Virus record (IMG/VR): IMGVR_UViG_3300042988_000478
Span: 1 to 49,515 of that record
Strand: one strand, 5' to 3'
DNA from: a virus
Length of the DNA stretch: 49,515 bases
Shown here: positions 9,145-35,004 of the stretch, one piece after another
Layout of the letters: every line of letters starts with the position of its first letter
Position numbering within the stretch: the stretch's first letter is position 1
Position numbers and translations under genes: made by a program
Notes under the pieces: generated by a model
Database searches by the model: none
What the model saw: the letters and a program-made list of their open reading frames with translations, nothing else
Told to the model about the DNA's origin: nothing

Positions 9145-9164
9145 CCTTTACCATCTTCTTAATT

Positions 9165-9195
9165 AAAGCCTTATGGCAATAAAAGCCTTATGGCA
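9165..9195 (+). repeat. Tandem 14-bp direct repeat
   Basis: AAAGCCTTATGGCA occurs at 9165-9178 and 9182-9195, 17 bp apart, between the HNH-like gene and the terminator. It could be a binding site or a slippage product. Confidence 0.7.
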
Positions 9196-9201
9196 GTTAA
9201 G

Positions 9202-9229
9202 CCACCTGTAGAAATATGGGTGGTTTTTT
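9202..9229 (+). terminator. Rho-independent terminator after HNH-like operon
   Basis: CCACC (9202-9206) pairs with GGTGG (9219-9223) and is followed directly by six T residues. It ends the two-gene cassette. Confidence 0.75.
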
Positions 9230-9242
9230 CTTTATCAACCAC

Positions 9243-9271
9243 TTGCATTATTATTTAATATATGCTATACT
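9243..9271 (+). promoter_or_regulatory. Strong promoter (TTGCAT-17-TGcTATACT) for a small RNA
   Basis: TTGCAT at 9243-9248, a 17-nt spacer, and TATACT at 9266-9271 with extended TG. Predicted start is about 9278-9279. No open reading frame follows, only structured sequence. Same architecture as the promoter at 26694-26722. Confidence 0.75.
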
Positions 9272-9278
9272 TATATAC

Positions 9279-9427
9279 ATCTTGGGTGATAAAAGGCTGT
9301 AGCTCCCCCAAGAGGCTATGGCCTTTTGTTATTAAAGAGTTTGCACCCCATCAAAGGGTTCTATCGTGAGGTAGAATAGTGGTGATATTTCAACATACCC
9401 AGAGAATACTCTATATGTGTGTTGGAA
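9279..9427 (+). ncRNA. Candidate small structured RNA
   Basis: Downstream of the promoter a 13-bp helix (9291-9303 with 9315-9327) has two G-U pairs and an 11-nt loop. The loop contains CCCAAG (9307-9312), which is complementary to CTTGGG at 9281-9286 just before the helix, so a pseudoknot or a switch between two folds is possible. Next comes a 7-bp hairpin capped by a GTGA tetraloop (9359-9376), enclosed by CACC/GGTG. A further hairpin lies near 9391-9426. No matching known class recognised; the 3' end is uncertain. Confidence 0.6.
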
Positions 9428-9712
9428 CAGTTATGGTTTGGGGGGACATTTCTTTTTCTTTTCTTTAATTCTTCTAAGGTACTTCTTAAGGATTCTTTTC
9501 ACTTTTCTTTAAAAGTAAAGAAGGTCGTCAGATATATCCCAATAGAATATCCTATCCAGATATATGAAGGTGTGATACGAGTATATATGATATATGTAAT
9601 ACATACATATGGTAGGTGAAAGTTGTGGAGGGTAATTAATCTAAATTGGTTCCGCATACCCCCGTACCCCTGCCACCAGCTATCTCCTATTTACATTTAT
9701 GATTTTCTATGC

Positions 9713-9740
9713 TCTAGTATACACACGCATATATACTAGA
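9713..9740. repeat. Perfect 9-bp inverted repeat
   Basis: TCTAGTATA and TATACTAGA flank a 10-nt spacer. Spacing between half-site centres (about 19 bp, near two helical turns) suits a dimeric DNA-binding protein. Confidence 0.6.
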
Positions 9741-9920
9741 ATATATATACTTTATGGTACTTTTATATGGTATATGGTATATATGAGCCTCAAAATTGAC
9801 CTATAACGAGCGTTTGAAGTGGTACTGGTAGGTAGTATCCTATAATGTGAGCATGTGAGGGCTATATAAAACAGTGGTATGTATGTATAGGGAGAGGGTG
9901 AGGGGAGAGAGGTATATAGA

Positions 9921-10000
9921 TTGCATATATTTAAATACTCTTACATACACTTGCATATATTTACATACGTCTACATATATCTTTCCTTTTCCTTGCATAT
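9921..10000 (+). repeat. Three TTGCATAT direct repeats (iteron-like)
   Basis: TTGCATATAT begins at 9921 and 9951 (30 bp apart), and TTGCATAT recurs at 9993. They lie amid TACATA repeats. They could be iterons or initiator sites. Confidence 0.5.
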
Positions 10001-10259
10001 ACCTTTATATATCGTTACTTCTTTTTATGTATTCATAGTGTTAGATAGTGAGTGTGTATATATATGGTTTGCTGTACAGGGAATGGGAAGCAATCCTTTT
10101 TAGTATACTGTTCTATACTGTTTACTGCGCCATACTGTTTTATCTTTGTATATGGGCAGGTTATCCACATTTTATTTTTATTGTATAGTTGCATGGTTGC
10201 TGTATGGGTATATAATGTATTCATACAAGTTAAAAAGATTGTATATGGTACAAAGCACA

Positions 10260-10403
10260 ATGAAAAAAGAATTCCGTTACAAGTACATCAAGGCACGAAT
10301 TGCTACTATACTATTCTATGGTGTTGTAGGGTTTGTGATTGGATCAATGTATATTGTACACAAGGTTGTGGACGCATATTTATCGTTATTGGTTAGCATG
10401 TAA
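10260..10403 (+). CDS. Small membrane protein
   Basis: 47 residues from the ATG at 10260: a basic N-terminus (MKKEFRYKYIKARIA), then one transmembrane helix (TILFYGVVGFVIGSMYIV) and a short tail. An in-frame upstream extension to 10146 is possible but begins in repeat-like DNA. First gene of a five-gene run ending at the terminator at 11255. Function unknown. Confidence 0.5.
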   Translation: MKKEFRYKYIKARIATILFYGVVGFVIGSMYIVHKVVDAYLSLLVSM

Positions 10404-10405
10404 GT

Positions 10406-10633
10406 ATGGCTATTGAGAAAGAATTTACCATACGCTATATTGTACGCAATAGCACACGATATGGACGTGAGAGAGAATATCATGACGTTGTGCAAGTATT
10501 TGCCCCTACTGTTGAGAAAGCATATAGAAAGGCGTGCAAATGTATTCCTAGTGGGTGGTTGGTTGATATGGAAGTGAAGTGTGGACAGCGTGGAGAATGG
10601 CACAGTGTAGGAAGTTTACAAGATAAAAAATAA
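10406..10633 (+). CDS. Small protein of unknown function
   Basis: A 75-residue protein (MAIEKEFTIRYIVRNSTRYGRE) that reads as a compact alpha/beta domain with a YRKACKCIPSGWLVDMEV stretch. It starts 2 nt after the previous stop and ends QDKK. Likely expressed early. Not recognised. Confidence 0.6.
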   Translation: MAIEKEFTIRYIVRNSTRYGREREYHDVVQVFAPTVEKAYRKACKCIPSGWLVDMEVKCGQRGEWHSVGSLQDKK

Positions 10634-10635
10634 TT

Positions 10636-10761
10636 ATGTACAAAGTAAAAACAAGCAAGCGGTGGTACTTTTTCAGACACAAAAGACATGCTGAAAAAAT
10701 GTACTCTACTGTAAAGGGTGCCGTTATGGTATGCGATACGATAAATAATAGAACATGTTAG
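10636..10761 (+). CDS. Very small basic protein
   Basis: A 41-residue protein starting MYKVKTSKRWYFFRHKRHAEK, strongly basic in its first half and ending NNRTC. The ATG is 2 nt after the preceding stop and its end overlaps the next start by 7 nt, which supports translation. Function unknown. Confidence 0.5.
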   Translation: MYKVKTSKRWYFFRHKRHAEKMYSTVKGAVMVCDTINNRTC

Positions 10762-11048
10762 CCTTGCCCTTGTTCGTGTATGCGGACTATGTAAAAGACG
10801 GTAGAACAAAAACTGCTCATATACAAACTAGAACATTTGGGGATCAAAAGCAGGATTGCAAGATAGGCGATTTTAGCGAGAATTGGTACTTGCGACCGAA
10901 AAAGGCAGTACAATGTAAGGAATATAAAACCGTAGCAGACTATAAAAGGGCTATAAGGTTGTGTATTCAAAAAAACCTTAATTGCAAAGTGTTGCGTGTG
11001 TATGCTCAAATTGAAGCGGGTGGGAACTTATACGATAAAGAATTATAA
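10755..11048 (+). CDS. Small protein of unknown function with Cys residues
   Basis: A 97-residue protein with four Cys (KQDCKIG, AVQCKEY, IRLCIQ, LNCKVLR). It begins with a short hydrophobic stretch (MLALPLFVY) too weak to call a signal peptide. The second half is helical (KTVADYKRAIRLCIQKN). It overlaps the previous gene by 7 nt. No family recognised. Confidence 0.55.
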   Translation: MLALPLFVYADYVKDGRTKTAHIQTRTFGDQKQDCKIGDFSENWYLRPKKAVQCKEYKTVADYKRAIRLCIQKNLNCKVLRVYAQIEAGGNLYDKEL

Positions 11049-11049
11049 A

Positions 11050-11247
11050 ATGATAAAGGCAATCACAAAAACAAACAAGGGCGAGGTATGGGCGCAAAGT
11101 GCTGGTTGTATGGTTTCAAATATCATGCTAGGGGATCGTGAGGTGGCAAGATTGACTATTACACAAAGACACACGCAAGGTTTTGCTCAAATTACGCTCG
11201 GCGTGGCAGGTAAGAAAAGACACGAAACATATATCATAAAATTGTAA
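11050..11247 (+). CDS. Small protein of unknown function
   Basis: A 65-residue protein from the ATG at 11050 (MIKAITKTNKGEVWAQSAG), a beta-rich sequence ending KRHETYIIKL. It is the last gene before the terminator at 11255. The longer reading starting at 10996 overlaps the previous gene deeply and is less likely. Confidence 0.55.
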   Translation: MIKAITKTNKGEVWAQSAGCMVSNIMLGDREVARLTITQRHTQGFAQITLGVAGKKRHETYIIKL

Positions 11248-11254
11248 ATAAAAA

Positions 11255-11274
11255 TAGCCCGTGAGGGCTTTTTT
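11255..11274 (+). terminator. Rho-independent terminator
   Basis: AGCCC (11256-11260) and GGGCT (11265-11269) enclose a GTGA tetraloop and run into a T-tract. Ends the 10260-11247 mini-operon. Confidence 0.8.
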
Positions 11275-11304
11275 CTTTAAGTGATTGTATAGGGTGCTGC
11301 TTTT

Positions 11305-11332
11305 GCGTTCGTTATAGGGCAGTTTTGAGCCT
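11305..11332. repeat. Recurring intergenic motif (TTCGTTATAGGGCAGTTTTGAG)-type copy
   Basis: Shares GTTATAGG and TTTTGAG with the reverse complement of 9785-9810. Weaker related copies are at 18591, 18669, 20281 and, inverted, 35021-35057. All lie between genes. Core is C-A-A-A-A-T-T-G-A-G. Confidence 0.45.
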
Positions 11333-11357
11333 TGTACGGCGTGTAAGTGCCTTGTAT

Positions 11358-11546
11358 TTATGCTGTTGCCTTGAAAATGTAGCAGTGTCTACAGGTAGGG
11401 ACACGCTTTCTTTTTTCTTTTCTGATCTGTTCTATTTTTGGAGTTTCGTATACTTTGCTGCTGTTTTGGATTGTAAGGGCGTGAGAAAAATCAAAGCCAG
11501 CAAGAAAAAATGCGAGTGTGATAAATAGTAATATAATAGTTTTCAT
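11358..11546 (-). CDS. Predicted secreted 62-residue peptide on the opposite strand
   Basis: It begins with a clear signal peptide: MKTIILLFITLAFFLAGF followed by a likely cleavage site after HA (residue 23). The mature part is short, basic and has two Cys (CRHC). The ATG lies 7 nt from the -10 box of a good reverse-strand promoter (11582-11554), so both expression and an export signal support it, although it runs against the forward-strand block. A toxin, lysis or superinfection-exclusion peptide would fit the size. The forward-strand frame opposite it is less convincing. Confidence 0.45.
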   Translation of the reverse strand: MKTIILLFITLAFFLAGFDFSHALTIQNSSKVYETPKIEQIRKEKRKRVPTCRHCYIFKATA

Positions 11547-11553
11547 ACGCCCT

Positions 11554-11582
11554 ATAATAGCATACTATTTTATGGGTGTCTA
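11554..11582 (-). promoter_or_regulatory. Promoter (TAGACA-17-TGcTATTAT) for the secreted-peptide gene
   Basis: Reverse strand: TAGACA at 11582-11577, a 17-nt spacer, and TATTAT at 11559-11554 with extended TG. Seven nt separate it from the ATG at 11546, so the transcript would be leaderless. Confidence 0.6.
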
Positions 11583-11625
11583 TTGACTTTTTGTATGTCA
11601 AGTTGTGTGGTATCACTATCCACAC
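11583..11625. promoter_or_regulatory. Two operator-like inverted repeats between divergent genes
   Basis: TTGAC/GTCAA (11583-11601) and GTGTGG/CCACAC (11605-11625) lie side by side between the reverse-strand promoter at 11554-11582 and a forward TATAAT at 11647. They are well placed for a repressor controlling both directions. Confidence 0.45.
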
Positions 11626-11646
11626 ACGCAATATATAGTGTTACTG

Positions 11647-11677
11647 TATAATGAATAACGCCTACAGAAACGTAGGC
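11647..11677 (+). promoter_or_regulatory. Forward -10 box and leader hairpin
   Basis: TATAAT at 11647-11652 without an evident -35 is followed by a GCCTAC/GTAGGC hairpin at 11660-11677. Both precede the gene at 11700. Confidence 0.45.
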
Positions 11678-11699
11678 ATTACTCATAAAAAGATTGTAT

Positions 11700-11990
11700 A
11701 TGATGTTACCGCAAGTGACTTGCTATGGTTCGTACAAGTCAGAAAATTACGGTGTGAACGCTTTATGCTTTACGTTCCCGTATATTGTAGACGTTTATTT
11801 TAGTTATAAAACTATAGTTGCTATCCGATACAATGGCGATCTGTTAGTTAGCGAAAACTGTTACAGCACCACCACTGGAAAGCATATAAACGCTATAGAC
11901 GGTGGGAATAAAGCAACACGGCTGCCACGTTCTCAATTTGAGCAACGTGTAGAGGCGATACTAGCAGAATTGAAACAGAAAGCAAGCTAG
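11700..11990 (+). CDS. Conserved phage protein with TTTGKH...DGG motif
   Basis: 96 residues from the ATG at 11700 (a second ATG follows at once). It contains YGSYKSENYGVNALCF, an FSYKTIVAI stretch and SENCYSTTTGKHINAIDGG followed by RLPRSQFEQRV. The Tyr-Gly-rich start and the TTTGKHxNAIDGG signature are shared by small proteins common in phages and metagenomic virus contigs. Biochemical role unknown. Followed by a terminator. Confidence 0.65.
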   Translation: MMLPQVTCYGSYKSENYGVNALCFTFPYIVDVYFSYKTIVAIRYNGDLLVSENCYSTTTGKHINAIDGGNKATRLPRSQFEQRVEAILAELKQKAS

Positions 11991-12053
11991 TACAAAAGAT
12001 ATACAATAAAGGCGAATACATAGCAAGGGCTACAAAGTCCACAAGCTAACAAA

Positions 12054-12093
12054 GCCACGATCTCAATATGTGAGGCGTGGTTTTTTGTTTTAT
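12054..12093 (+). terminator. Rho-independent terminator
   Basis: CCACG (12055-12059) pairs with CGTGG (12076-12080), with an inner CTCA/TGAG extension, and is followed by six T residues and TGTTTT. Confidence 0.8.
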
Positions 12094-12467
12094 AGACGCA
12101 CATAGAACATACAAAAGACAAGAATACGCCACATACTAGACCACAAAACCCAAACGAATACACTTATCCACAGATAAACGTAAACCGAATATTGACTTTT
12201 TCTCTCACTCGTATATACTCACAATGAACAGCAGAAATATGTAGCCCAGATTATATAAAAATGCGCTTGGGGGTTTTCATTCCACCCGAATATGCAAATG
12301 GGGGTTTTACATTCTGTTGTTGGTCATTCATAAAGTATATTGGGTCGCAAACCCTTATACTATGTTGGGGTAATTCACAAGTGTTTTACTCTGATGAAGT
12401 CTACGGACAAAAATGATAGTAAACTATCAAAAGGGTACATTCAGTGTACGATACTAGGTGCTTGTAG
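12094..12467 (+). other. Gene-free leader before tRNA-Ile
   Basis: Contains the promoter at 12192-12219 and two GGGGGTTTT-type stretches (12270-12316), but no convincing gene. A ribosomal start with a long frame is absent. Confidence 0.5.
12192..12219 (+). promoter_or_regulatory. Promoter (TTGACT-16-TATACT) for tRNA and noncoding RNA region
   Basis: TTGACT at 12192-12197 and TATACT at 12214-12219, separated by 16 nt. No protein gene follows for 1.4 kb, so its products are the tRNA-Ile and the noncoding region after it. Confidence 0.65.
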
Positions 12468-12540
12468 TGGCGGTTAGTTCAGTTGGTAGAACACTCGTCT
12501 TATACACGGGCAGTCATAGGTTCAAGTCCTATACCGCCAA
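12468..12540 (+). tRNA. tRNA-Ile (anticodon TAT, reads AUA)
   Basis: Full cloverleaf: a 7-bp acceptor TGGCGGT/ACCGCCA, D-stem GTTC/GAAC, anticodon stem CTCGT/ACGGG with one G-U, loop CTTATAC, and T-stem ATAGG/CCTAT with loop TTCAAGT. Discriminator A at 12540; the full CCA is not encoded (A-CA). The TAT anticodon serves AUA, frequent in this A/T-rich genome. Confidence 0.92.
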
Positions 12541-13059
12541 CACAGGCACTTAGTAGTAAATACTTTTATAAAGTATACGTTCTATACAAAGGAGTTATCC
12601 ACAGGTGTGCAGTTGACATTAAATCAAAACCTGCTAGTATGGAACATGTGAGGGGCGCAGGTTCCTCACACAGCTAAAGTAGCCTACGGGTGTACACAGC
12701 TCTAGTTATATCTTAGGATATACACAACCCACCACATTCTAACATAGTGTAGCAAGGTGTGAGCATACACAGGTCGTCTGTTATCTCTCTCACTAGGAAG
12801 CGAAGCTAACCTTATCGTAAAATAGGGTACATGTGGTCTGTAGCGTGTGGGCGTTTCCAACACTCACACACTCTACTGGTAAAGCCATTGGGTTCTGGTC
12901 ATTCTTATGCATGTAAGCATTAAAAGCCATGTAAAAATGGTACTAACGTGTTCCCCATTACAACATACACCACAATTACCTTGTATGGTACAGTGCGCCA
13001 GTCCGCAAGGGCAAAGAAGCGACAATATAAACAGCGTGTTATGTGTATTGGGGACAAAT

Positions 13060-13132
13060 GGGCTAGTATGGTTACTAGGACGCAAAAGAAGGATAAGCGT
13101 ATATACTTAGGGTTCGATCCCCTTATAGCCCA
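13060..13132 (+). ncRNA. tRNA-like element with enlarged anticodon-arm loop
   Basis: A 73-nt unit. Acceptor GGGCTAG/ATAGCCC pairs 6 of 7; the T-arm is AGGG/CCCT with canonical loop TTCGATC; discriminator A then CA. The middle lacks a normal anticodon arm. Instead ACGC/GCGT encloses a 13-nt purine-rich loop containing AGAAGGA, so no anticodon can be read. Either a decayed tRNA or a tRNA mimic. Confidence 0.5.
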
Positions 13133-13156
13133 CAAGCCTACATTATGTAGGTGACA

Positions 13157-13237
13157 TGGACGGAAGTTAGCTATTACCACCACAACAGAAATGGAGTGGT
13201 ACCAGAGGTAATATAGGTGCAATTCCTGTACGTCCAC
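13157..13237 (+). ncRNA. Second tRNA-like element with nested stems
   Basis: Ends pair as TGGACG/CGTCCA. A T-arm-like ATAGG/CCTGT holds loop TGCAATT. Inside, ATTACC/GGTAAT encloses ACCAC/GTGGT with a 12-nt loop containing AGAAATGGA. No readable anticodon. It resembles the previous element in plan: acceptor plus T-arm plus an enlarged purine-rich loop. Confidence 0.4.
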
Positions 13238-13641
13238 AACCATTATCAAAATGGTGATAGTGGCAGTATTTATTGTGTAGAAAGACAATAGTCAATATAC
13301 GCTATACAATAGTGCGAGGATATTGGCAGAGAAGTTATTGCGGGTCGTGTGCTTTCAAGGTACACGTTGTTCGACGCACAAAGTCTAGATACATACAATT
13401 ACACAATTTTTTCAGATGTTCCGTGTAGTATGTATTTACGGTTGGTATTTACCAGATATTGAGTGTTTAGAGCAAACGGGCAGAACATGAAAAACGGCTG
13501 CTAACATGGTGTATGTTCAAGTATAAATGTCATTCCAACAATTCCGTAAATTGTGATAGAGTGTTCTATTGCGGTGAAAAGGTCAGTTTTGGTCATAGTT
13601 TTGAGGACTACACAGGGTGTTTCAAGTAAAAGCAGATGTTC

Positions 13642-13890: not shown

Positions 13891-14316
13891 ATGGACACAA
13901 TAGACAAAATGTATCAAGACTTTACAACACATATTGCACCAAAACTTGCAGAGGGTCTTGTGATCACAAAAGATTACTTTATCGACTTGTTCGGGAGGTA
14001 TGTCAAGTATTTGATAGTTATTGACTCGTTTCAAGTCCTAGCTAGTGTGCTACTTTTAGTTGTTGCGCTTATATCATTTAAAAAGTGGTCAAAATTTATA
14101 AATGAGGCACCAGAGGAAAAATACATATACAGTAATGAGCTAAAAAGAAGTGGTAGACAAGACGCTAAAATAGCGGTGTCCTTTATTGTCGCTATGTTGG
14201 GTACGATAATTGGGATTGCCTCAATAGTATCGACAACACAAAACCTTATAAAGTCAATATATATTCCAGAGGTTCGTATCATTGAGGAGTTACGGTCTTA
14301 TAACATTAACAAATAA
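13891..14316 (+). CDS. Membrane protein with two transmembrane helices
   Basis: A 141-residue protein. TM1 is around residues 45-62 (FQVLASVLLLVVALISF) and TM2 around 95-113 (IAVSFIVAMLGTIIGIASIV), with a charged loop between (KKWSKFINEAPEEKYIY). The short gap to the next gene (3 nt) puts it in the same operon as the first amidoligase, so it may anchor that system at the membrane or deliver its product. That role is inference from position. Confidence 0.7.
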   Translation: MDTIDKMYQDFTTHIAPKLAEGLVITKDYFIDLFGRYVKYLIVIDSFQVLASVLLLVVALISFKKWSKFINEAPEEKYIYSNELKRSGRQDAKIAVSFIVAMLGTIIGIASIVSTTQNLIKSIYIPEVRIIEELRSYNINK

Positions 14317-14319
14317 TAT

Positions 14320-15291
14320 ATGAACATAGAACATAAGTATTGTGTAATGGGGAGTGATCCAGAATTCTTTTTCAAGCGTGACGGTAAGATTGTTGAGAGT
14401 AAACAATGTCTTGCAGATAAGGGGTTGAAGTATATTGTTGAGGACGGTATACAAGGTGAAATTCACCCTACTCCTAGCCAGTGTCGTGCAATATTGGGGG
14501 CAGAGTTCACAGATATATTCAATATAATGAGACAACAAAACTTAGAGGCACTTGCAGACTTCTCACAAAATGTCAAGTTGACAAAGGAGGAAATGGATAG
14601 TATACCAGATGATTGTAAGCGACTTGGTTGTAACCCTAGCTTAAATGTTAGTGAAGATGTCATACCTGTCAATATTGACGGCTTAGAATATCCATATCGT
14701 AGTGCAGGGGGTCACATACACATTGACACTGGCTCTAATACTAAAAATGAGCAGCTACGAAAGGACGCTATAAAGTTTATCAAACTTATGGACGTTGTTG
14801 TTGGCAATACTTGTGTGCTTATTGACAGGGATAAGGGCAACATAACACGTCGAAAGGTGTATGGACGTGCTGGTGAGTATCGTATAAAACCATATGGGTT
14901 GGAGTATCGAACATTATCAAACTTTTGGCTACGAAGCTACCCACTATACACATTTGTGTTCGGGCTGGCAAGGTATGTTATGTCACTCTACTTAAATGGA
15001 AAGACAGATGAGGTGCTTAGTCTAGTAGATTACAAAGACATACGGGAGGCGATAAACAAAAACGACAAAAAGTTGGCAAAGGCTAACTTTGATAAGATTA
15101 AAGGTATATTCCCTACTGGTGATTATAATAGAGCGCAATACTACAAGTCAGTGTTGGATCAAGAGACTATTCCAGTATTTGAGAAACTTATCAAGACTGG
15201 TATCATGGGGCGGTTCTCTAGTAAGGTTATTAGTAATTGGTTGGATAAACCTAGAGTTTCATTTGAAACTTGGATATTAAAGTACAAGTAA
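14320..15291 (+). CDS. COOH-NH2 ligase, phiEco32-type amidoligase
   Basis: 323 residues. Glutamine-synthetase-fold amidoligases join a carboxyl to an amine using ATP. Family features visible are GSDPEFFFKRDGKIV near residue 10, DGIQGEIHPTPSQCRA near 45, CNPSLNV near 105, YRSAGGHIHID near 127, and EYRIKPYGLEYRTLSNFWLR near 187-206. The acidic and His residues are those expected to bind metal and ATP. In phage phiEco32 this family occurs with an ATP-grasp enzyme and a class-II amidotransferase, all three of which are present here. Substrate unknown: peptide, amino acid or cell-surface group. Confidence 0.85.
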   Translation: MNIEHKYCVMGSDPEFFFKRDGKIVESKQCLADKGLKYIVEDGIQGEIHPTPSQCRAILGAEFTDIFNIMRQQNLEALADFSQNVKLTKEEMDSIPDDCKRLGCNPSLNVSEDVIPVNIDGLEYPYRSAGGHIHIDTGSNTKNEQLRKDAIKFIKLMDVVVGNTCVLIDRDKGNITRRKVYGRAGEYRIKPYGLEYRTLSNFWLRSYPLYTFVFGLARYVMSLYLNGKTDEVLSLVDYKDIREAINKNDKKLAKANFDKIKGIFPTGDYNRAQYYKSVLDQETIPVFEKLIKTGIMGRFSSKVISNWLDKPRVSFETWILKYK

Positions 15292-15292
15292 T

Positions 15293-15661
15293 ATGACGGT
15301 ACTAGAAAGCACTTTTTGTTGTGCAGTTGGAGAGTTAGACCATTTAGGTTTCTCAAAATCACCACAAGAGGCATTAAAAGATATTGGTGGTCATTATTGG
15401 CACAGTGACGAAAGAGCCTTTATATTCTTTACAGAGGTAAGGCGAAAGGGGCGGTCAAAGAAAGTGACAGGTCGTTACGGTGAAAAGCTCAAAGCATACA
15501 TAAAAAAACATAAACTTGGTACGGTTATTGCAACAGATACTAAGAAAAATGTAAATAGTGGCAACCATGTTCGTATGTATGTGTGGACAGTAAACAAGAC
15601 AAACTTTAAAAAGTGGTGTAAACTACATAACTGTTACAATAACTTTAACGATTGGTTCTAA
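15293..15661 (+). CDS. Protein of unknown function in the amidoligase operon
   Basis: A 122-residue basic protein (about 20% Lys/Arg) beginning MTVLESTFCCAVGELDHLGF and containing AFIFFTEVRRKGRSKKVTGRYG. It ends with an aromatic cluster (CYNNFNDWF). It starts 1 nt after the upstream amidoligase stop and ends right before the next start, so it is co-translated. No family recognised. Conserved Cys residues at positions 9-10 and 108-114 are possible functional sites. Confidence 0.6.
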   Translation: MTVLESTFCCAVGELDHLGFSKSPQEALKDIGGHYWHSDERAFIFFTEVRRKGRSKKVTGRYGEKLKAYIKKHKLGTVIATDTKKNVNSGNHVRMYVWTVNKTNFKKWCKLHNCYNNFNDWF

Positions 15662-16084
15662 ATGCAAACATTCCTACCTTATGCAGACTTTCAAAAATCA
15701 GCACAATGCTTAGACAGGGCAAGGCTTGGTAAACAACGTGTAGAATGTCTACAAATACTACAAGCTCTCACTGGTGAGCGAAAAGGTTGGACAAACCACC
15801 CTGCTACTAAGATGTGGAAAGGTAATGAGGTGTGGTTGGTTGACTATGCAATAACTATTTGTCGTGAGTGGTTATTGAGAGGTTACAAAGATACATGCCT
15901 ACAAAAAATACACCTTATTATCTTAAACTGGGACACACTTAAAATAAACAAAACAACACCATGTTGGCTTGGGGATCAAGACTTCCACGACAGGCACAAG
16001 TCTAACCTACTTAGAAAAGCACCAGAACATTATCAGCAATTTAACTGGGACGTACCAGATAATTTACCGTATCGTTGGCTATGA
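15662..16084 (+). CDS. MSMEG_6728-family protein
   Basis: A 140-residue protein. The start MQTFLPYADFQKSAQCLDRARLGKQRVE, then ILQALTGERKGWTNHPATKMWKG and ICREWLLRGYKDTC, are the family signature. The family is widespread in bacteria and phages, and some members are annotated as pyrimidine-dimer DNA glycosylase-like, but the function is not established. The KQR and WxNHPA motifs are intact. It sits inside the amidoligase operon, and its TGA overlaps the next ATG. Confidence 0.8.
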   Translation: MQTFLPYADFQKSAQCLDRARLGKQRVECLQILQALTGERKGWTNHPATKMWKGNEVWLVDYAITICREWLLRGYKDTCLQKIHLIILNWDTLKINKTTPCWLGDQDFHDRHKSNLLRKAPEHYQQFNWDVPDNLPYRWL

Positions 16085-17385
16085 GTGATATAATAAAATC
16101 AAATAGGAAGTTCGGGGTAGAAATAGAAGTGTATGCAGACTGCTCTCGTAGTATTGACAAAATGATTGATGTGTTGCGTACACAAAAGTACCGTGACTAT
16201 TCTGTACATTCGGACGGCAGCATACAAGGGCCTAATGGTCGTGAGTATGTTACTCCACCACTTGTAAAAAAAGATGTACCAACCTTTATATCTTTTGTCA
16301 AGCATATAAAAGAGGCAGGATTTAAAGTTGATCCTAGTTGCGGTCTACATGTTCATTTTGGAGTTGAGGAGTACCTACAAGATACATTGTGGGACGTTAT
16401 TCCAGCGTCAGAGCTTATCAGCAAATATGGCAAAACAAAACTAAATAAGGTTATCTTTATCAAAAAGGAGTTGAACACAAAAGAGAACGTAAATGCACTT
16501 AAACATTTTTTTCCTCCAACAGAGCAGGAAATACATGATTTTGGTGGTAAAATTGTGTACACTCTCCCTAATTGTAAAGAGAATACTGTACTCAAATACA
16601 ATAGAATAAATGTTGCAAAAACGGTATATGTTGGCGTAGTTGATAAAGGGCTATACGATAAGTTCCAACAAGATCACTACAAAATAAGAAAAGATAGGGA
16701 CGTTGCGGATGCTTTAAATAGCGAACCACTTGACTTCCGTATTCCACCGTGGGACATAGAGTATAAAGAGAAAAAACAAAAGTTGTTATCAGAGTTCGAT
16801 AAAAAAGTATTTGAACAAGCGACTTTCACTGGTAACGACTATGTTATTGTAGAATACTACAACACTACAACACACCAAACGCTAAAGAATATCTTTGCTT
16901 TCTACCTTGTGTTTTCAGATGTAATGCAGATGTTCCTACCTAAAACACGACGAAATAACAGATATTGTCAAGACCTGCTTAGCAAGTATACCCTTAAAGA
17001 GATACAAGACATAAAATCATTTGAGGACTTTGACAAAGTGTGGTACAAAGAGCATAAACCAGATAGTATTCGTCGAATGAAAGGTGAAAAGTACCATAGT
17101 AGTAGATACTATGCAGTAAACTTTCACAGTTTGTCAAGGCACAAAACAATAGAGATAAGATCACATTCAGGGACGACAAATATAAAGAAAATACTTTATT
17201 GGGTCGCCCTCCACCAGAGTATCATTGACACCGTAGCAGAGGATAAAAACTTTGACACTTTTATTGAAAGTGTCAATTCTATTACAGATAAGGACACCAA
17301 ATTACAAGTGTTCTATGAGTATATAAAGGCACCTAAAGATATGGTGAAATACCTTAATTCTCGCATTAACATTCTTAAAAACTAA
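16081..17385 (+). CDS. Second amidoligase (Amidoligase_2-like)
   Basis: 434 residues from the ATG at 16081, which overlaps the previous stop. The glutamine-synthetase-like features are FGVEIEVY near residue 11, HSDGSIQGPNGREYVTPPLV near 41-60, CGLHVHFGV near 84, and KTIEIRSHSGTTN near 357. These place it in the amidoligase_2 family, distinct from the first enzyme. The middle (about 120-300) is longer than usual and lacks recognised motifs. Two different amidoligases in one operon suggest two successive ligation steps or two substrates. Confidence 0.82.
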   Translation: MSDIIKSNRKFGVEIEVYADCSRSIDKMIDVLRTQKYRDYSVHSDGSIQGPNGREYVTPPLVKKDVPTFISFVKHIKEAGFKVDPSCGLHVHFGVEEYLQDTLWDVIPASELISKYGKTKLNKVIFIKKELNTKENVNALKHFFPPTEQEIHDFGGKIVYTLPNCKENTVLKYNRINVAKTVYVGVVDKGLYDKFQQDHYKIRKDRDVADALNSEPLDFRIPPWDIEYKEKKQKLLSEFDKKVFEQATFTGNDYVIVEYYNTTTHQTLKNIFAFYLVFSDVMQMFLPKTRRNNRYCQDLLSKYTLKEIQDIKSFEDFDKVWYKEHKPDSIRRMKGEKYHSSRYYAVNFHSLSRHKTIEIRSHSGTTNIKKILYWVALHQSIIDTVAEDKNFDTFIESVNSITDKDTKLQVFYEYIKAPKDMVKYLNSRINILKN

Positions 17386-17390
17386 ACAGT

Positions 17391-18560
17391 ATGTGTGGTA
17401 TTATTTTTGGAAGTAGAAAGGACGGGAAACCTATAGCAAAGGCACTACTAAAGAGGTACCGTAACCAAAGTCACCGTGGTAAACAGGGTTTTGGTTATGT
17501 GACAATAACAAATGGCAAACTTGGTGATGTCAAGCGTTTTGAGAATGAGAACGAAATGGAGGCAAGCATTATCAAAGAGACAGCAGGTGAGATACTTTTT
17601 CACCACCGCTTCCCTACGTCTACACCAAACCTTGCAGAGCTAAACCACCCATTCGTAATAGATGATGAGCGTTTTGCAAACAAGTACATTGTAATTCACA
17701 ATGGGGTTATATCAAACGCCCACAGTCTAAAATACGAACACGAAAAGAAAGGGTATTCTTATAAGTCATTCCTAGAAACTGTAACCACAGTAATAAAGCG
17801 TACCCTTGCAAGAAATGAGGAGGCGAGCGAAACTAAGACGACTGTATTTAACGATAGTGAGGCACTTGCCTTTGAGTTAGCAGAATACTTTGAGGGTATC
17901 AAGACTAAAATTGCTGCGATAGGGAGTATTGCTTTCATTTGTCTAGAGGTTGACAGGGACGATAATGTGTTGAAAATACACTATGGTCGCAATCATGGAA
18001 ACCCTATTGTTGTTGAGCGTGATCTGAAAAGTGGTATATACTTTTTCAAGTCAGAGGGAGGTGGCTACAAAATGGAAGCGGATCAGATTGCAACCATTGA
18101 CTATGCCACAGATGATGTGTCATTACAAGAGGTGGAAGTTGGAGAAACGTATACAAAGCCAAAATCAGCAACAAAGTGGTTAGAGGATAGGGAAAAGGAA
18201 AAAGCACGTATTGTTGGCTTCAATACAGACAAAGTTCGTAGTATTCCGTTGCATGAGATAGATATTGACGACGATAAGTCAAACCAGCCTATCATAGATG
18301 AGCTTGTTGGTGAGATTGAGACTAAAATTGCAGACTTGTCAGCAGAGGAAGAGGACGTTGTTCGGTGCATTAGCGACCTTAACCTACAAATTGCAGCAGA
18401 GAGAAACTATCGTGACAAAGATATGCTCACAATAGAGCGAGAACAATGGTGTCAAGAGCTTGTTCGTATACGAAAGGAAATGTCAAAACTAGAGGATCAG
18501 GTTGAGCAGATTACTGGTAACAGTGAGGCTCTTAAAGAGATACAAGAATATCATAGCTAA
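17391..18560 (+). CDS. Class-II glutamine amidotransferase with coiled-coil tail
   Basis: 389 residues. The N-terminus MCGIIFGSRKDG places the catalytic Cys at residue 2, exposed after Met removal. The usual NTN-type signatures follow in altered form: SHRGKQGFGYV near 27, HHRFPTSTPNLAELNHPF near 66, IVIHNGVISNA near 100, and a SEALAFELAEYFEG acidic site near 153. It would hydrolyse glutamine to release ammonia for an amide ligase. Residues about 305-385 form a charged coiled coil (LSAEEEDVVRC to EDQVEQITG) not needed for catalysis, perhaps for binding the amidoligases. It follows the second amidoligase by 5 nt. Confidence 0.87.
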   Translation: MCGIIFGSRKDGKPIAKALLKRYRNQSHRGKQGFGYVTITNGKLGDVKRFENENEMEASIIKETAGEILFHHRFPTSTPNLAELNHPFVIDDERFANKYIVIHNGVISNAHSLKYEHEKKGYSYKSFLETVTTVIKRTLARNEEASETKTTVFNDSEALAFELAEYFEGIKTKIAAIGSIAFICLEVDRDDNVLKIHYGRNHGNPIVVERDLKSGIYFFKSEGGGYKMEADQIATIDYATDDVSLQEVEVGETYTKPKSATKWLEDREKEKARIVGFNTDKVRSIPLHEIDIDDDKSNQPIIDELVGEIETKIADLSAEEEDVVRCISDLNLQIAAERNYRDKDMLTIEREQWCQELVRIRKEMSKLEDQVEQITGNSEALKEIQEYHS

Positions 18561-18717
18561 ATAAGGCTAAAATAGCATATGCCCTTAAAACGCCCAAAAT
18601 TGAGCGTGGTGAGGAGTTTATATCAAAAGGTATATTGGTACTATTTTGGTGTAAACTATCCACTACAGTCAAATTTGAGCCTTATAGGGGTATATTTAAA
18701 AGCTACCTAACCACACT
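18561..18717 (+). other. Intergenic region with two copies of a recurring motif
   Basis: 157 bp without a gene. CGCCCAAAATTGAGCG at 18591-18606 and GTCAAATTTGAGCC at 18669-18682 belong to a motif also found at 9785, 11305 and 20281. Probable binding sites or transcription-control elements. Confidence 0.45.
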
Positions 18718-18981
18718 ATGATTACTACTACAAATTCAGAACAAGAGAACATTCCAACAACATTGTCAATGTTCGACACACATGCACCGTTGGCAACAGT
18801 ACACGACTTTTATCAAGAGTATGAAAGAAAGGTAAAAATCATTCGTGGTGCAAACTACAAAGCAGACGCAAAGGGTTTTATTGGGTGGCTCTCTACACAA
18901 CACGGCAGAATTATTATCAAGGTTAGAGATACACCTCCTCCTAAACTAACAGCACTATTACCATATAAGGTTGACTTATAG
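18718..18981 (+). CDS. Small protein of unknown function
   Basis: An 87-residue protein beginning MITTTNSEQENIPTTLSMF, continuing with HDFYQEYERKVKIIRGANYKAD and ending with a Pro-rich turn (RDTPPPKLTALLPYKVDL). It stands alone between two regulatory gaps. No family recognised. Starts at the ATG at 18718 without a Shine-Dalgarno. Confidence 0.6.
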   Translation: MITTTNSEQENIPTTLSMFDTHAPLATVHDFYQEYERKVKIIRGANYKADAKGFIGWLSTQHGRIIIKVRDTPPPKLTALLPYKVDL

Positions 18982-19011
18982 GTAGTATTGTTTCTTATTA
19001 CTATTAACCTA

Positions 19012-19040
19012 TTGACTTATGTAATACCATTTGTTATACT
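19012..19040 (+). promoter_or_regulatory. Promoter (TTGACT-17-TGtTATACT) for the ATP-grasp operon
   Basis: TTGACT at 19012-19017, a 17-nt spacer, and TATACT at 19035-19040 with extended TG. Predicted start near 19047, giving a 210-nt leader full of palindromes ahead of the gene at 19258. Confidence 0.7.
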
Positions 19041-19061
19041 ACTTCCAACAAGGACTTTGAC

Positions 19062-19206
19062 AACAGACATATAGCTATATATACCTTATATAAAGACATA
19101 TATAGCTATATATAAGTTTAAATATAGCTATATAGACATATATATAGCTATATACCTTATATAAGGTATATGTCTTATATAAGGTATATTATATATTATA
19201 ACATAT
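19062..19206. repeat. Dense AT palindromes (TATAGCTATA and ACCTTATATAAGGT)
   Basis: The self-complementary core ATAGCTATAT recurs at least four times. CCTTATATAA appears three times, once as a perfect palindrome ACCTTATATAAGGT. Base composition is almost entirely A/T. The tract can form cruciforms or RNA hairpins and may be a replication origin, an iteron array or an attenuating leader. Confidence 0.6.
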
Positions 19207-19257
19207 GTGTCAAGTGTTCCTGTTTTGGCTTTAAATTATTCAAATTTTAATAAATAT

Positions 19258-20019
19258 ATGCCAACAAAATACCGTATTTATCCATACAAAATAGGTTCAG
19301 CTTCAGCTAAGGCACTAGCACAAAGTCTAGGTGGGTGGTGCGTATACTCTAACAAACGCTTCCCTGCACGCAAGGATCACAAGATAATAAATTGGGGCAA
19401 CACAGAAAACCCTACTTGGCGCAAACCAGACACTTTCATACTAAACAAACCAGAGTGTGTTGCTTTAGCTACTAACAAACTTTCTACTTTTGAAAGGTTG
19501 GCAGAGAATGGAGTTCCTGTACCAGATTACACAACAGATTACAATGTTGCACAAGGTTGGGTAAATGACGGTAGTTCAGTTTATGTACGCAAGGTTCTAA
19601 ATGGTCATGGCGGTAACGGTATTGAGGTATGTCGTGGGGGCATTTTACCACGGGCGCACCTTTACACTAAGGCTATTACTGTAAAAGCAGAGTACCGTGT
19701 ACACGTTTTTAACGGAAAGGTTATTGACTATGCAAAAAAACGTAGACGAATTGATGATGTTCCAAATGAGGATCAGTTGTCAGTTCGTAACCATGAGAAC
19801 GGCTGGATATTTACCAGAGAAAACTTGCGACGACTAGAACGTGTTGAGCAAATGGCTATAAATGCAATCAAATCATTGGGGCTGGACTTCGGTAGTTGTG
19901 ATATTGTTCGTGATATTAACAATGATTGCTTCGTTTTAGAGGTAAACACCGCAAGTGGTATTGAGGGTACCACATTAGAAAATTATACTAACGCTATTCG
20001 GGAATTTTATGGACAATGA
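19258..20019 (+). CDS. ATP-grasp ligase
   Basis: 253 residues from the ATG at 19258. ATP-grasp enzymes activate a carboxylate as acyl-phosphate and join it to an amine or thiol. Features are KLSTFERLAENGVPVPDY near 80, VRKVLNGHGGNGIEVCR near 113, KAEYRVHVFNGKVIDYAKKRR near 150, and the metal-binding end GLDFGSCDIVRD then CFVLEVNTASGIEG near 230. A GTG at 19207 gives 17 more residues but lies in the palindromic leader. It is the third ligase of the predicted amide-forming system, with its own promoter. Confidence 0.85.
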   Translation: MPTKYRIYPYKIGSASAKALAQSLGGWCVYSNKRFPARKDHKIINWGNTENPTWRKPDTFILNKPECVALATNKLSTFERLAENGVPVPDYTTDYNVAQGWVNDGSSVYVRKVLNGHGGNGIEVCRGGILPRAHLYTKAITVKAEYRVHVFNGKVIDYAKKRRRIDDVPNEDQLSVRNHENGWIFTRENLRRLERVEQMAINAIKSLGLDFGSCDIVRDINNDCFVLEVNTASGIEGTTLENYTNAIREFYGQ

Positions 20020-20236
20020 AATAAGAGAGTGGGACGAAAGAGATGACGAGAGTTTATTCTCAAGAGAACACCCATATATTACTTTTGATGAGTTTGAGGG
20101 GGCGTTTCCTGTTTTTACTAGAGGGCCGATACAGTCTACAGGCAGCTTCCAACCAGACGAGTTTATCAAAGCTCTAGACGAATTAGCAAAGTCACCAGAC
20201 GAGGAAGATATAGAGATAGACGATAGTGATATGTAG
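20009..20236 (+). CDS. Small highly acidic protein, candidate substrate of the ligase system
   Basis: A 75-residue protein in which about one third of residues are Asp or Glu. The N-terminus is MDNEIREWDERDDES, the middle has a FTRGPIQSTGSFQP linker, and the end is EEDIEIDDSDM. It overlaps the ATP-grasp gene by 11 nt, so the two are translationally coupled. Acidic side chains are typical targets of amidoligases and ATP-grasp peptide ligases, so it may be the protein that is modified, or a DNA-mimic inhibitor. Both are inference. Confidence 0.55.
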   Translation: MDNEIREWDERDDESLFSREHPYITFDEFEGAFPVFTRGPIQSTGSFQPDEFIKALDELAKSPDEEDIEIDDSDM

Positions 20237-26026: not shown

Positions 26027-26668
26027 ATGGAAAATAAATCTATTACAAATGGGTTTATTATATTAACAGAAGTTGCTTCATCTAAAGTTAGGAAACTCAT
26101 AGAGGAAAACCATTACAGCCATAAATGCACACCAAACCACTTTCTATCATTTGATATTAATAATGGCTTGGGGGGGATACAGTTAGGTTTTGGGATAAGA
26201 CCTCACATTAAATCGTCTGTGAGCAAATTAATAACAAAAGATAATTATTGTGAGTTTGATAGAATGTGGGTTGATGACAGATTACCTAAGAATAGCGAAT
26301 CACAAATAATTAGTTTGTTATTGAAGTATCTTAAAATAAATTACCCTAGAATTAAATTTGTTGTAACCTATGCAGACGGTTCTGTTGGTAATCGTGGAAT
26401 AATTTATCAAGCAACAAACGGCATTGAAATAAAACCTATACTTTGTGATTTTTATGAGACCGAAGATGGAGAGAGAATACACCCAGTATCAATGTGGCAT
26501 CGCCACAAAACAAGAGCTTGGTCATTTTTACAGAAAGAATATCCAAATATAAAACATATAAAGGGAACAAAGAAGAAACCTATTTACCAATATAGGTATG
26601 TTTATGTACTTGATAAAAAATTAAGAAAACAGTTTTTAAAAGAATTAGGAATTAGTAGATTAAATTAA
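26027..26668 (+). CDS. mom: Mom-like DNA adenine modification protein (GNAT-fold)
   Basis: 213 residues. Phage Mu Mom adds a carbamoylmethyl group to N6 of adenine, protecting DNA from restriction. Family features here are IEENHYSHKC near 27, FDRMWVDDRLPKNSESQIIS near 82, VVTYADGSVGNRGIIYQATN near 115 with the conserved Tyr-Ala-Asp and YQATN, and a basic C-terminus (YVLDKKLRKQFLKELG). Many phage genes with this pattern are annotated as adenine methylcarbamoylation proteins. Unlike Mu there is no com gene next to it, and expression may be tied to the operon. The Glu/Asp-rich substrate site is intact. Confidence 0.8.
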   Translation: MENKSITNGFIILTEVASSKVRKLIEENHYSHKCTPNHFLSFDINNGLGGIQLGFGIRPHIKSSVSKLITKDNYCEFDRMWVDDRLPKNSESQIISLLLKYLKINYPRIKFVVTYADGSVGNRGIIYQATNGIEIKPILCDFYETEDGERIHPVSMWHRHKTRAWSFLQKEYPNIKHIKGTKKKPIYQYRYVYVLDKKLRKQFLKELGISRLN

Positions 26669-34187: not shown

Positions 34188-34380
34188 TGTTGCTAATGCG
34201 CAGTCAAATATTGATGAGGAGCTTATTGCTTTCGCACAAGAGTTAAACGAATGGATGAAGGAACGAGGTTTGGCGCTACAACCATTCATCCGACCATTGG
34301 TAACAAAGACAGGATTTAAGTATGGTGAGGCTGCATCAGTTGACCTAGTACGGTTTAACCCAGAAGTAAACGTAGACTAA
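34153..34380 (+). CDS. Small protein between GroEL and GroES
   Basis: A 75-residue protein (MAKTKKTEKNTNVANAQSNI), a helical middle with AFAQELNEWMKERGLALQPF, and an end VRFNPEVNVD. It overlaps the end of groEL by 35 nt in another frame and is followed 1 nt later by groES. Possibly a chaperonin regulator or substrate. Function unknown. Confidence 0.65.
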   Translation: MAKTKKTEKNTNVANAQSNIDEELIAFAQELNEWMKERGLALQPFIRPLVTKTGFKYGEAASVDLVRFNPEVNVD

Positions 34381-34381
34381 C

Positions 34382-34687
34382 ATGAGTAAGTTCGACATTA
34401 CAAAGCACACAATGTTGCACGATAATGTCCTTATCCGTGCAATTAGAGCAGACGAGATTGAAAATAAAAGTGGCCTTATCGACCCTGAACAGTATGAAGA
34501 TAAACCAGAGTGGGGTGAAGTTCTTGCTGTAGGAGATGGTCGCATGCTTGAGAATGGAACTCGTTCACCTATTAGTGTAAAACCAGGAGATATTGTTCTC
34601 TACGGTAAATACTCTCCATATCAAACACGAGTTGATGGTGAAGACTATCTTATTGTAAGAGATGAAGAGATTCTCTCAAAAGCTTAA
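34382..34687 (+). CDS. groES: GroES-type co-chaperonin
   Basis: 101 residues. It contains the co-chaperonin core LHDNVLIRAIRADEI near 12, PEWGEVLAVGDGRMLENG near 42, VKPGDIVLYGKYS near 66 and DGEDYLIVRDEEIL at the end, matching the 97-residue E. coli GroES. The mobile-loop position (about 25-35, NKSGLIDP) has a hydrophobic tripeptide typical of GroEL contact. The order groEL-groES is reversed compared with bacterial groESL. Confidence 0.9.
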   Translation: MSKFDITKHTMLHDNVLIRAIRADEIENKSGLIDPEQYEDKPEWGEVLAVGDGRMLENGTRSPISVKPGDIVLYGKYSPYQTRVDGEDYLIVRDEEILSKA

Positions 34688-35004
34688 TGACTAAGTTATT
34701 TGTATACGGGACATTAAGGCACAAGAATATCCTACAGGCCGTTTTAGGAAGAGAGAAAGTTCCATCATATACAGAGGCGATATTGAAAGACTACTTCAGA
34801 AAGAGTTTAAATATATATGCTTGGCCAGGCTCAAGTGTTGATGGTTATATTATAGATGTATCAGATGATGACCTTAAGAAACTTGATAAATATGAAGCCG
34901 TGGATGAAGAATTGTACAAGCGCATCACTGTGAGACCTGTACTTGAAGATGGTACCGAAGTTGAATGTATTGCATATCAGTTATGTGGTACTGATGAGGA
35001 CTAA
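34687..35004 (+). CDS. Gamma-glutamylcyclotransferase-like (AIG2/GGCT) protein
   Basis: 105 residues. MTKLFVYGTLRHKNILQAVLG at the start is the family signature (YGTLRxxxxxxxxLG); WPGSSVDGYIIDVSDDDLKKLDKYEAVDE near 45-75 follows with the catalytic-type Glu position. These enzymes release 5-oxoproline from gamma-glutamyl amines. The family is found in predicted amidoligase/GAT-II/ATP-grasp gene sets, so it may trim the product of that system here, although it is 15 kb away. Overlaps groES by 1 nt. Confidence 0.8.
   Translation: MTKLFVYGTLRHKNILQAVLGREKVPSYTEAILKDYFRKSLNIYAWPGSSVDGYIIDVSDDDLKKLDKYEAVDEELYKRITVRPVLEDGTEVECIAYQLCGTDED

What the first reader, a model, noticed from the sequence alone, without database searches (positions are those of the whole stretch)
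13891..20236. Amidoligase / GAT-II / ATP-grasp cassette, a predicted tagging or ligating system
Five enzymes of amide-bond chemistry are encoded: a phiEco32-type COOH-NH2 ligase, an Amidoligase_2-like enzyme, a class-II glutamine amidotransferase, an ATP-grasp ligase and (at 34687) a GGCT-like cyclotransferase. They are accompanied by a two-TM protein, an unknown 122-residue protein and an MSMEG_6728-family protein. The motifs are visible in the sequence. The association of these families in phage gene sets is known from comparative genomics of amidoligases by Aravind's group. That the system modifies a protein, a peptide or the cell surface is inference. The two different amidoligases plus a coiled-coil amidotransferase make this set larger than the phiEco32 version.
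Basis: partly seen in the sequence, partly recalled or inferred. Interest (0 to 1): 0.85.

Follow-up and report, generated by a model that had tools for sequence, protein, structure and literature searches.

The report
Phage glutamyl-amide ligase gene cassette
This uncultivated phage carries a divergent version of a gene cassette already known from hundreds of phages, whose enzymes join molecules through glutamate-type amide bonds early in infection, probably to alter the host cell envelope, though its real target has never been tested.

Summary
Profiles place 14320-15291 in COOH-NH2_lig, 16081-17385 in Amidoligase_2, 17391-18560 near class-II glutaminases, 19207-20019 near RimK-type ATP-grasp glutamate ligases, and 34687-35004 in GGCT, with the core catalytic motifs intact. 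It is not a new system. The same genes in the same order, ending at the primase/helicase, occur in phiEco32 itself (gp86-85-84-83-80-77-75), LUZ24, tf and UFV-P2, and are published as a 'peptidoglycan modification cassette'. So the claim that this set is larger than phiEco32's is wrong.

What is new is a second clade of the cassette, known here only from environmental contigs. It lacks the otherwise conserved phrog_4877 protein and often carries a novel 122-residue family (P122) found only beside the cassette. The window and its nearest relatives lack Shine-Dalgarno sites, as Bacteroidota phages do. Fifty records split the cassette into a core (amidoligase, glutaminase, ATP-grasp) and a gamma-glutamyl unit (COOH-NH2 ligase plus GGCT or a C26 hydrolase). 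This fits adding, then removing, a gamma-glutamyl group; few independent events support it. The target (envelope, metabolite or protein) remains inference. The acidic 75-residue, two-TM and MSMEG_6728 proteins are not conserved parts.

The parts
13891..14316 (+). 141-aa protein with two predicted membrane segments; adjacent gene, not a conserved cassette member
   Evidence: two hydrophobic segments 37-67 and 91-117; weak phrog_23747 hit; no relative in 160+ cassette loci
14320..15291 (+). C: COOH-NH2 ligase (glutamine synthetase/GCS fold), predicted gamma-glutamyl-type amide ligase, second-clade form with C-terminal extension
   Evidence: PF14395 7.7e-12; phrog_3815 1.7e-39; GxDPE, HxH, EYR motifs invariant; AF2 pLDDT 91.6; PDB matches glutamine synthetase, YbdK, GmaS, GCL, PafA
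15293..15661 (+). P122: new small alpha/beta family with CC(G/A) motif, linked to the second-clade cassette; lies in the slot where phrog_4877 sits in other phages
   Evidence: 22 aligned members; 21 hits in 12 of 50 whole records, all inside the cassette loci; absent from 50,697 phage records by tblastn; model pLDDT 85.5 with no clear PDB fold
15662..16084 (+). MSMEG_6728-family protein (Pyr_excise domain); inserted gene, not a cassette member
   Evidence: NF038085 4.8e-50; PF03013 9e-27; no relative in cassette loci; overlaps next gene by 4 bases
16081..17385 (+). A: Amidoligase_2
   Evidence: PF12224 1.7e-24; ExE, HxH, R290, N347, ExR conserved
17391..18560 (+). T: class-II glutamine amidotransferase (glutaminase) domain with helical, probably coiled-coil tail
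   Evidence: phrog_13807 9e-8, GlmS-like N-terminus 4.7e-11, iterated profile 5.8e-49; Cys2, Arg73, Asn104-Gly105, Asp155 conserved
18718..18981 (+). 87-aa ORF between T and G; not conserved
   Evidence: no relatives in cassette loci
19207..20019 (+). G: RimK-like ATP-grasp ligase (start uncertain; Met18 at 19258 aligns with most relatives' starts)
   Evidence: phrog_2599 4.1e-73; profile matches alpha-L-glutamate ligase RimK 7qyr 7.3e-12; 33-45% identity to five phage homologues, conserved ExN motif
20009..20236 (+). 75-aa acidic protein overlapping the end of G; not conserved
   Evidence: net charge -18, overlaps G by 11 bases; no phmmer relative; by-eye likeness only in L008
20499..21950 (+). 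DNA primase/helicase that closes the cassette in most relatives (positional marker)
   Evidence: phrog_239 7e-60; follows G in most loci
34687..35004 (+). g: gamma-glutamyl cyclotransferase (GGCT/BtrG-like), here 14.7 kb from the cassette, after groES
   Evidence: PF06094 6.5e-15; YGTL motif present; lies just upstream of C in the nearest relatives L008-L011 and L067

Best explanation
A divergent member of the widespread early 'peptidoglycan modification' amide-ligase cassette of LUZ24/phiEco32/Zobellviridae-type phages. Shown: the four enzymes and GGCT are present, intact and (GGCT apart) syntenic with that cassette. Inferred chemistry: T frees ammonia from glutamine. A and the RimK-like G activate carboxylates with ATP and form amide or peptide bonds on a common acceptor. 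C (glutamine synthetase/GCS fold) attaches a gamma-glutamyl-type group to an amine. GGCT, or in other phages a C26 hydrolase, later removes a gamma-glutamyl group. Least certain: the acceptor is most likely a host envelope precursor, modified at the start of infection. Rough weights: membership 0.97, glutamyl add/remove logic 0.5, envelope target 0.35.
For: Synteny with phiEco32, LUZ24, tf and UFV-P2 and with 99 contigs carrying the whole core. C model matches glutamine synthetase, gamma-glutamylmethylamide synthetase, glutamate-cysteine ligase and PafA. G is closest to alpha-L-glutamate ligases. GGCT or C26 occurs in 32 of 41 C-bearing records and 1 of 9 C-lacking ones; within C-bearing records the two are largely alternatives (2 of 41 have both). 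Cassette genes of Pseudoalteromonas phage HP1 are expressed immediately on infection (PMC7082346). LUZ24-like U17 DNA is cut by 11 of 16 restriction enzymes, so dense DNA modification is unlikely (PMC11945000).
Against: No enzyme of the cassette was found with a biochemical test in the papers held. On the ATP-grasp tree C changes only 4 times and few independent pairs exist, so the C and GGCT/C26 link is not significant once relatedness is counted. Seven of 19 second-clade C-bearing records have neither GGCT nor C26 by Pfam. No transporter or lipid-linked enzyme marks an envelope target. C's PDB matches are mostly weak (one hit under E 0.001, TM about 0.4).
Confidence: 0.55

Rival explanations
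1. The cassette makes a soluble peptide-like metabolite (an inhibitor, signal or capped amine), not a surface modification; gamma-glutamyl is a protecting group as in butirosin synthesis.
For: ATP-grasp plus a GGCT (tf_25 annotated BtrG-like) with several ligases resembles butirosin logic (established knowledge); LUZ24 gp9 binds the host gamma-glutamylpolyamine synthetase SpuB in yeast two-hybrid, not confirmed (PMC4635203).
Against: No carrier protein, tailoring enzyme or exporter is conserved; no product is known.
Confidence: 0.25
2. The cassette tags a host or phage protein with glutamate or amide groups, RimK-style.
For: G is closest to RimK-type alpha-L-glutamate ligases; C's fold is shared with the Pup ligase PafA.
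Against: No conserved small substrate protein: the 75-residue protein has no relatives, and the small genes after G are unrelated between phages. G scores under the RimK family cut-off.
Confidence: 0.15
3. Auxiliary nitrogen metabolism: the enzymes feed glutamate and related amino acids to the host cell.
For: Proposed for phage ZRK32, which carries the cassette (PMC10945688; locus L006).
Against: Two or three different ligases, a fixed order and removal enzymes are not needed for nitrogen assimilation; the ZRK32 effect was measured with whole phage, not with these genes.
Confidence: 0.08
4. The cassette hypermodifies phage DNA, perhaps with the Mom protein at 26027.
For: Mom is present in this phage (PF25680 5e-41).
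Against: Mom is in 0 of 50 cassette phages while the same search finds it in the window; DNA of the cassette phage U17 is cut by 11 of 16 enzymes.
Confidence: 0.04

Closest known systems
phiEco32 gp86-gp75 cassette (Kuravirus phiEco32, NC_010324)
   Same: C, A, class-II glutaminase, ATP-grasp, GGCT and primase/helicase in the same order
   Different: phiEco32 has a phrog_4877 protein (gp85) between C and A, a longer glutaminase (676 aa) and ATP-grasp (397 aa), and GGCT inside the cassette; the window has P122 and an MSMEG_6728 protein between C and A, and GGCT 14.7 kb away
'Peptidoglycan modification cassette' of RIO-1/PSA-HP1/LUZ24/tf/PaP3/CW02 phages (PMC5498523, citing Hardies 2013 and Iyer et al.)
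   Same: two amidoligases, ATP-grasp, GGCT and glutamine amidotransferase, among early genes
   Different: the window's C, A and T are highly diverged (T has no tblastn match in 50,697 phage records); no phrog_4877
Amidoligase + GATase genes of OM43/HMO-2011-type marine phages (PMC10580990)
   Same: Amidoligase_2 and GATase together
   Different: the ATG-only contigs seen here, which may be of that type, lack C, phrog_4877, GGCT and C26
Butirosin BtrJ/BtrG and Puu gamma-glutamyl pathways (established knowledge)
   Same: an ATP-dependent ligase adds a glutamyl group and a cyclotransferase or C26-type hydrolase removes it
   Different: functional analogy only; different folds for some steps and unknown substrate

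Membership tests
Phage amide-ligase ('peptidoglycan modification') cassette | COOH-NH2 ligase (PF14395) with GxDPE/HxH/EYR motifs | tested here: met
   45.4 bits vs cut-off 25; motifs invariant
Phage amide-ligase ('peptidoglycan modification') cassette | Amidoligase_2 (PF12224) | tested here: met
   87.5 bits vs cut-off 22; conserved residues kept
Phage amide-ligase ('peptidoglycan modification') cassette | class-II glutaminase with N-terminal Cys | tested here: met
   GATase_6 just under cut-off but 5.8e-49 with family profile; Cys2 and active-site set kept
Phage amide-ligase ('peptidoglycan modification') cassette | ATP-grasp of phrog_2599 | tested here: met
   4.1e-73
Phage amide-ligase ('peptidoglycan modification') cassette | gamma-glutamyl removing enzyme (GGCT or C26) | tested here: met
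   GGCT at 34687, 56.2 bits vs 22.8, though not adjacent
Phage amide-ligase ('peptidoglycan modification') cassette | order C-A-T-G followed by primase/helicase | tested here: met
Phage amide-ligase ('peptidoglycan modification') cassette | phrog_4877 protein next to C (marker of the classic clade; treated as accessory because both other groups lack it) | tested here: not met
   0 hits in the window and in 28 non-classic records, 22 of 22 in records chosen as classic
Phage amide-ligase ('peptidoglycan modification') cassette | modifies peptidoglycan | not testable with these tools
   no biochemical data found in the papers held
RimK alpha-L-glutamate ligase family (TIGR00768) | score over family cut-off | tested here: not met
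   49.2 bits vs 143.4; related, not a member
R2K clade ATP-grasp | score over R2K_2/R2K_3 cut-offs | tested here: not met
   17.4 vs 26.2 and 14.3 vs 26.3
T4 endonuclease V-type pyrimidine dimer glycosylase (15662 gene) | Thr2 nucleophile after Met removal (established knowledge) | tested here: not met
   sequence begins MQTFLPY, residue 2 is Gln; best named MSMEG_6728 family
LysW-type amino-group carrier (75-aa protein) | zinc-ribbon cysteines and C-terminal Glu (established knowledge) | tested here: not met
   no Cys in the protein; it ends ...DDSDM
Mom DNA-modification protein (26027 gene) | score over PF25680 cut-off | tested here: met
   141 vs 27.1 bits

The most novel reading that the evidence does not exclude
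A second, uncultivated lineage of the cassette, perhaps partly in Bacteroidota phages, has replaced the phrog_4877 subunit with the new P122 family. The whole system works as two separable units: a core ligase unit (amidoligase, glutaminase, ATP-grasp) and a gamma-glutamyl protect/deprotect unit (C plus an interchangeable GGCT or C26 hydrolase). That would be a protecting-group pathway carried by lytic phages.
Probability: 0.3. Interest if true: 0.65.

Novelty: new variant of a known kind. Interest (0 to 1): 0.4.

Why it matters
The cassette is in over 300 sequenced phage records, including laboratory and therapy phages, and its function rests on a genomic prediction from 2009. The modular pattern gives a concrete, testable prediction: gamma-glutamyl intermediates that accumulate when GGCT or C26 is removed. 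The second clade and P122 add a natural variant that shows which parts are essential.

Tried and rejected
Single-protein scans of viral contigs with the ATP-grasp, glutaminase and P122 found nothing; alignments were needed. P122 as a remote phrog_4877 homologue: hhalign 0.2% probability. P122 related to tf_13 and LUZ24 gp12: suggested by fold search (matching the hits to these two genes rests on protein length), not supported by profile (E 0.075 and 0.3). Small acidic or zinc-ribbon proteins after the ATP-grasp as LysW-like carriers: sequences and C-termini not conserved. Mom as part of the system: 0 of 50 cassette phages. Bacteroidota promoter motif: no significant excess. Independent-contrast test of C with GGCT/C26: too few events. 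Iyer 2009 and Hardies 2013 could not be read; both are cited through papers that were.
Full report
WHAT WAS CHECKED. The window is the whole of one IMG/VR virus record of 49,515 bases, with rightward early genes and leftward structural genes (terminase, portal and head). Profile searches place 14320 in COOH-NH2_lig, 16081 in Amidoligase_2, 19207 in the phage ATP-grasp family phrog_2599, 34687 in GGCT and 15662 in the MSMEG_6728 family. The glutaminase at 17391 scores slightly under Pfam's cut-off, but a profile iterated from phage relatives gives 5.8e-49, and its N-terminus is GlmS-like. Alignments to five named phages show the active-site residues intact in all four enzymes.

IT IS A KNOWN CASSETTE. 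phiEco32 itself carries gp86 COOH-NH2 ligase, gp85 (phrog_4877), gp84 Amidoligase_2, gp83 class-II glutaminase, gp80 ATP-grasp, gp77 GGCT and gp75 primase/helicase, in that order. The same order is in tf, LUZ24 and UFV-P2 (PMC3890496). tblastn finds C in 305 and G in 310 phage records. PMC5498523 calls it a seven-gene peptidoglycan modification cassette, conserved in phiEco32, 7-11, PA11, tf, LUZ24, PaP3 and CW02.

HOW THE CASSETTE VARIES. 160 environmental loci were fetched with the ATP-grasp and C alignments and annotated with iterated profiles. 99 contigs carry all four core enzymes; the order is C-A-T-G in 57, T-C-A-G in 19 and G-C-T-A in 13. Three groups emerge. Classic: with phrog_4877. 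ATG-only: 27 contigs with A, T and G but no C, phrog_4877, GGCT or C26; the C profile was negative in the ATG-only records tested, while positive controls rang. Second clade, with the window: C present, phrog_4877 absent from all records tested and from the window, C with a C-terminal extension and a shared 'CR' motif, and P122 in 12 of 20 whole records tested. All 21 whole-record P122 hits fall inside the fetched cassette loci. P122 has no tblastn match in 50,697 phage records.

CHEMISTRY. C's model (pLDDT 91.6) matches glutamine synthetase (E 7.8e-4), YbdK, gamma-glutamylmethylamide synthetase, plant glutamate-cysteine ligase and PafA; all but the first are above E 0.001, so this places the superfamily, not the substrate. 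G's nearest solved relatives are alpha-L-glutamate ligases. GGCT and C26 both act on gamma-glutamyl bonds (established knowledge). In 50 whole records one or the other is present in 32 of 41 with C and in 1 of 9 without C (Fisher p 3e-4). Among C-bearing records the two tend to exclude each other (2 both, 17 GGCT only, 13 C26 only; p 0.0014). These p-values ignore relatedness: on the ATP-grasp tree C changes only 4 times and independent pairs are too few for a test. The pattern is a lead, not proof, that C's product is a gamma-glutamyl species later removed.

TARGET. Early expression is reported for the HP1 cassette (PMC7082346). Dense DNA modification is unlikely: U17 phage DNA is cut by 11 of 16 enzymes (PMC11945000), and Mom does not travel with the cassette. 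Envelope, soluble product and protein tagging remain open; the envelope is preferred because the cassette is early, lacks a conserved protein substrate and has that published proposal. The 75-residue acidic protein, 87-residue ORF, two-TM protein and MSMEG_6728 protein have no relatives in the cassette loci.

HOST HINT. None of 37 window genes with an ATG start has a Shine-Dalgarno-like site (7% expected by chance). Flavobacterium and Porphyromonas phages are also near chance, while LUZ24 has 76%. The window's nearest relatives (L008-L011, L067) are likewise near chance, but other second-clade members are not. A Bacteroidota host is plausible for the window; the promoter motif did not confirm it.

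VERDICT. Observation confirmed; interpretation partly supported; a new variant of a known cassette. What is added here is the two-unit structure, the second clade and the P122 family.

Noticed in passing
26027-26668: Mom-family DNA modification protein (PF25680 5e-41), not found in 50 other cassette phages.
   Followed up: yes
32613-34687: Phage-encoded GroEL (NF009487 2.7e-106) and GroES (PF00166 4.3e-23), with GGCT directly after GroES.
   Followed up: partly
whole window: No Shine-Dalgarno-like site upstream of 37 ATG-start genes, as in Bacteroidota phages; suggests an SD-independent host.
   Followed up: yes
15293-15661: P122 family has 2-3 paralogous copies around the cassette in some contigs (L099, L103, L107), meaning unknown.
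   Followed up: partly
46431-48476: Leftward 681-aa protein with a long Cys/Ser/Thr-rich repetitive C-terminal part; no Pfam match.
   Followed up: no
9145-13600: About 4.4 kb with only short ORFs, holding a tRNA-Ile with the unusual anticodon TAT at 12468.
   Followed up: no
L109, L113, L129, L136, L149, L161: A further cassette arrangement (g-h-G-h-C-T-A); L129, L149 and L161 are very AT-rich (GC 0.24-0.29) and also lack Shine-Dalgarno sites.
   Followed up: no
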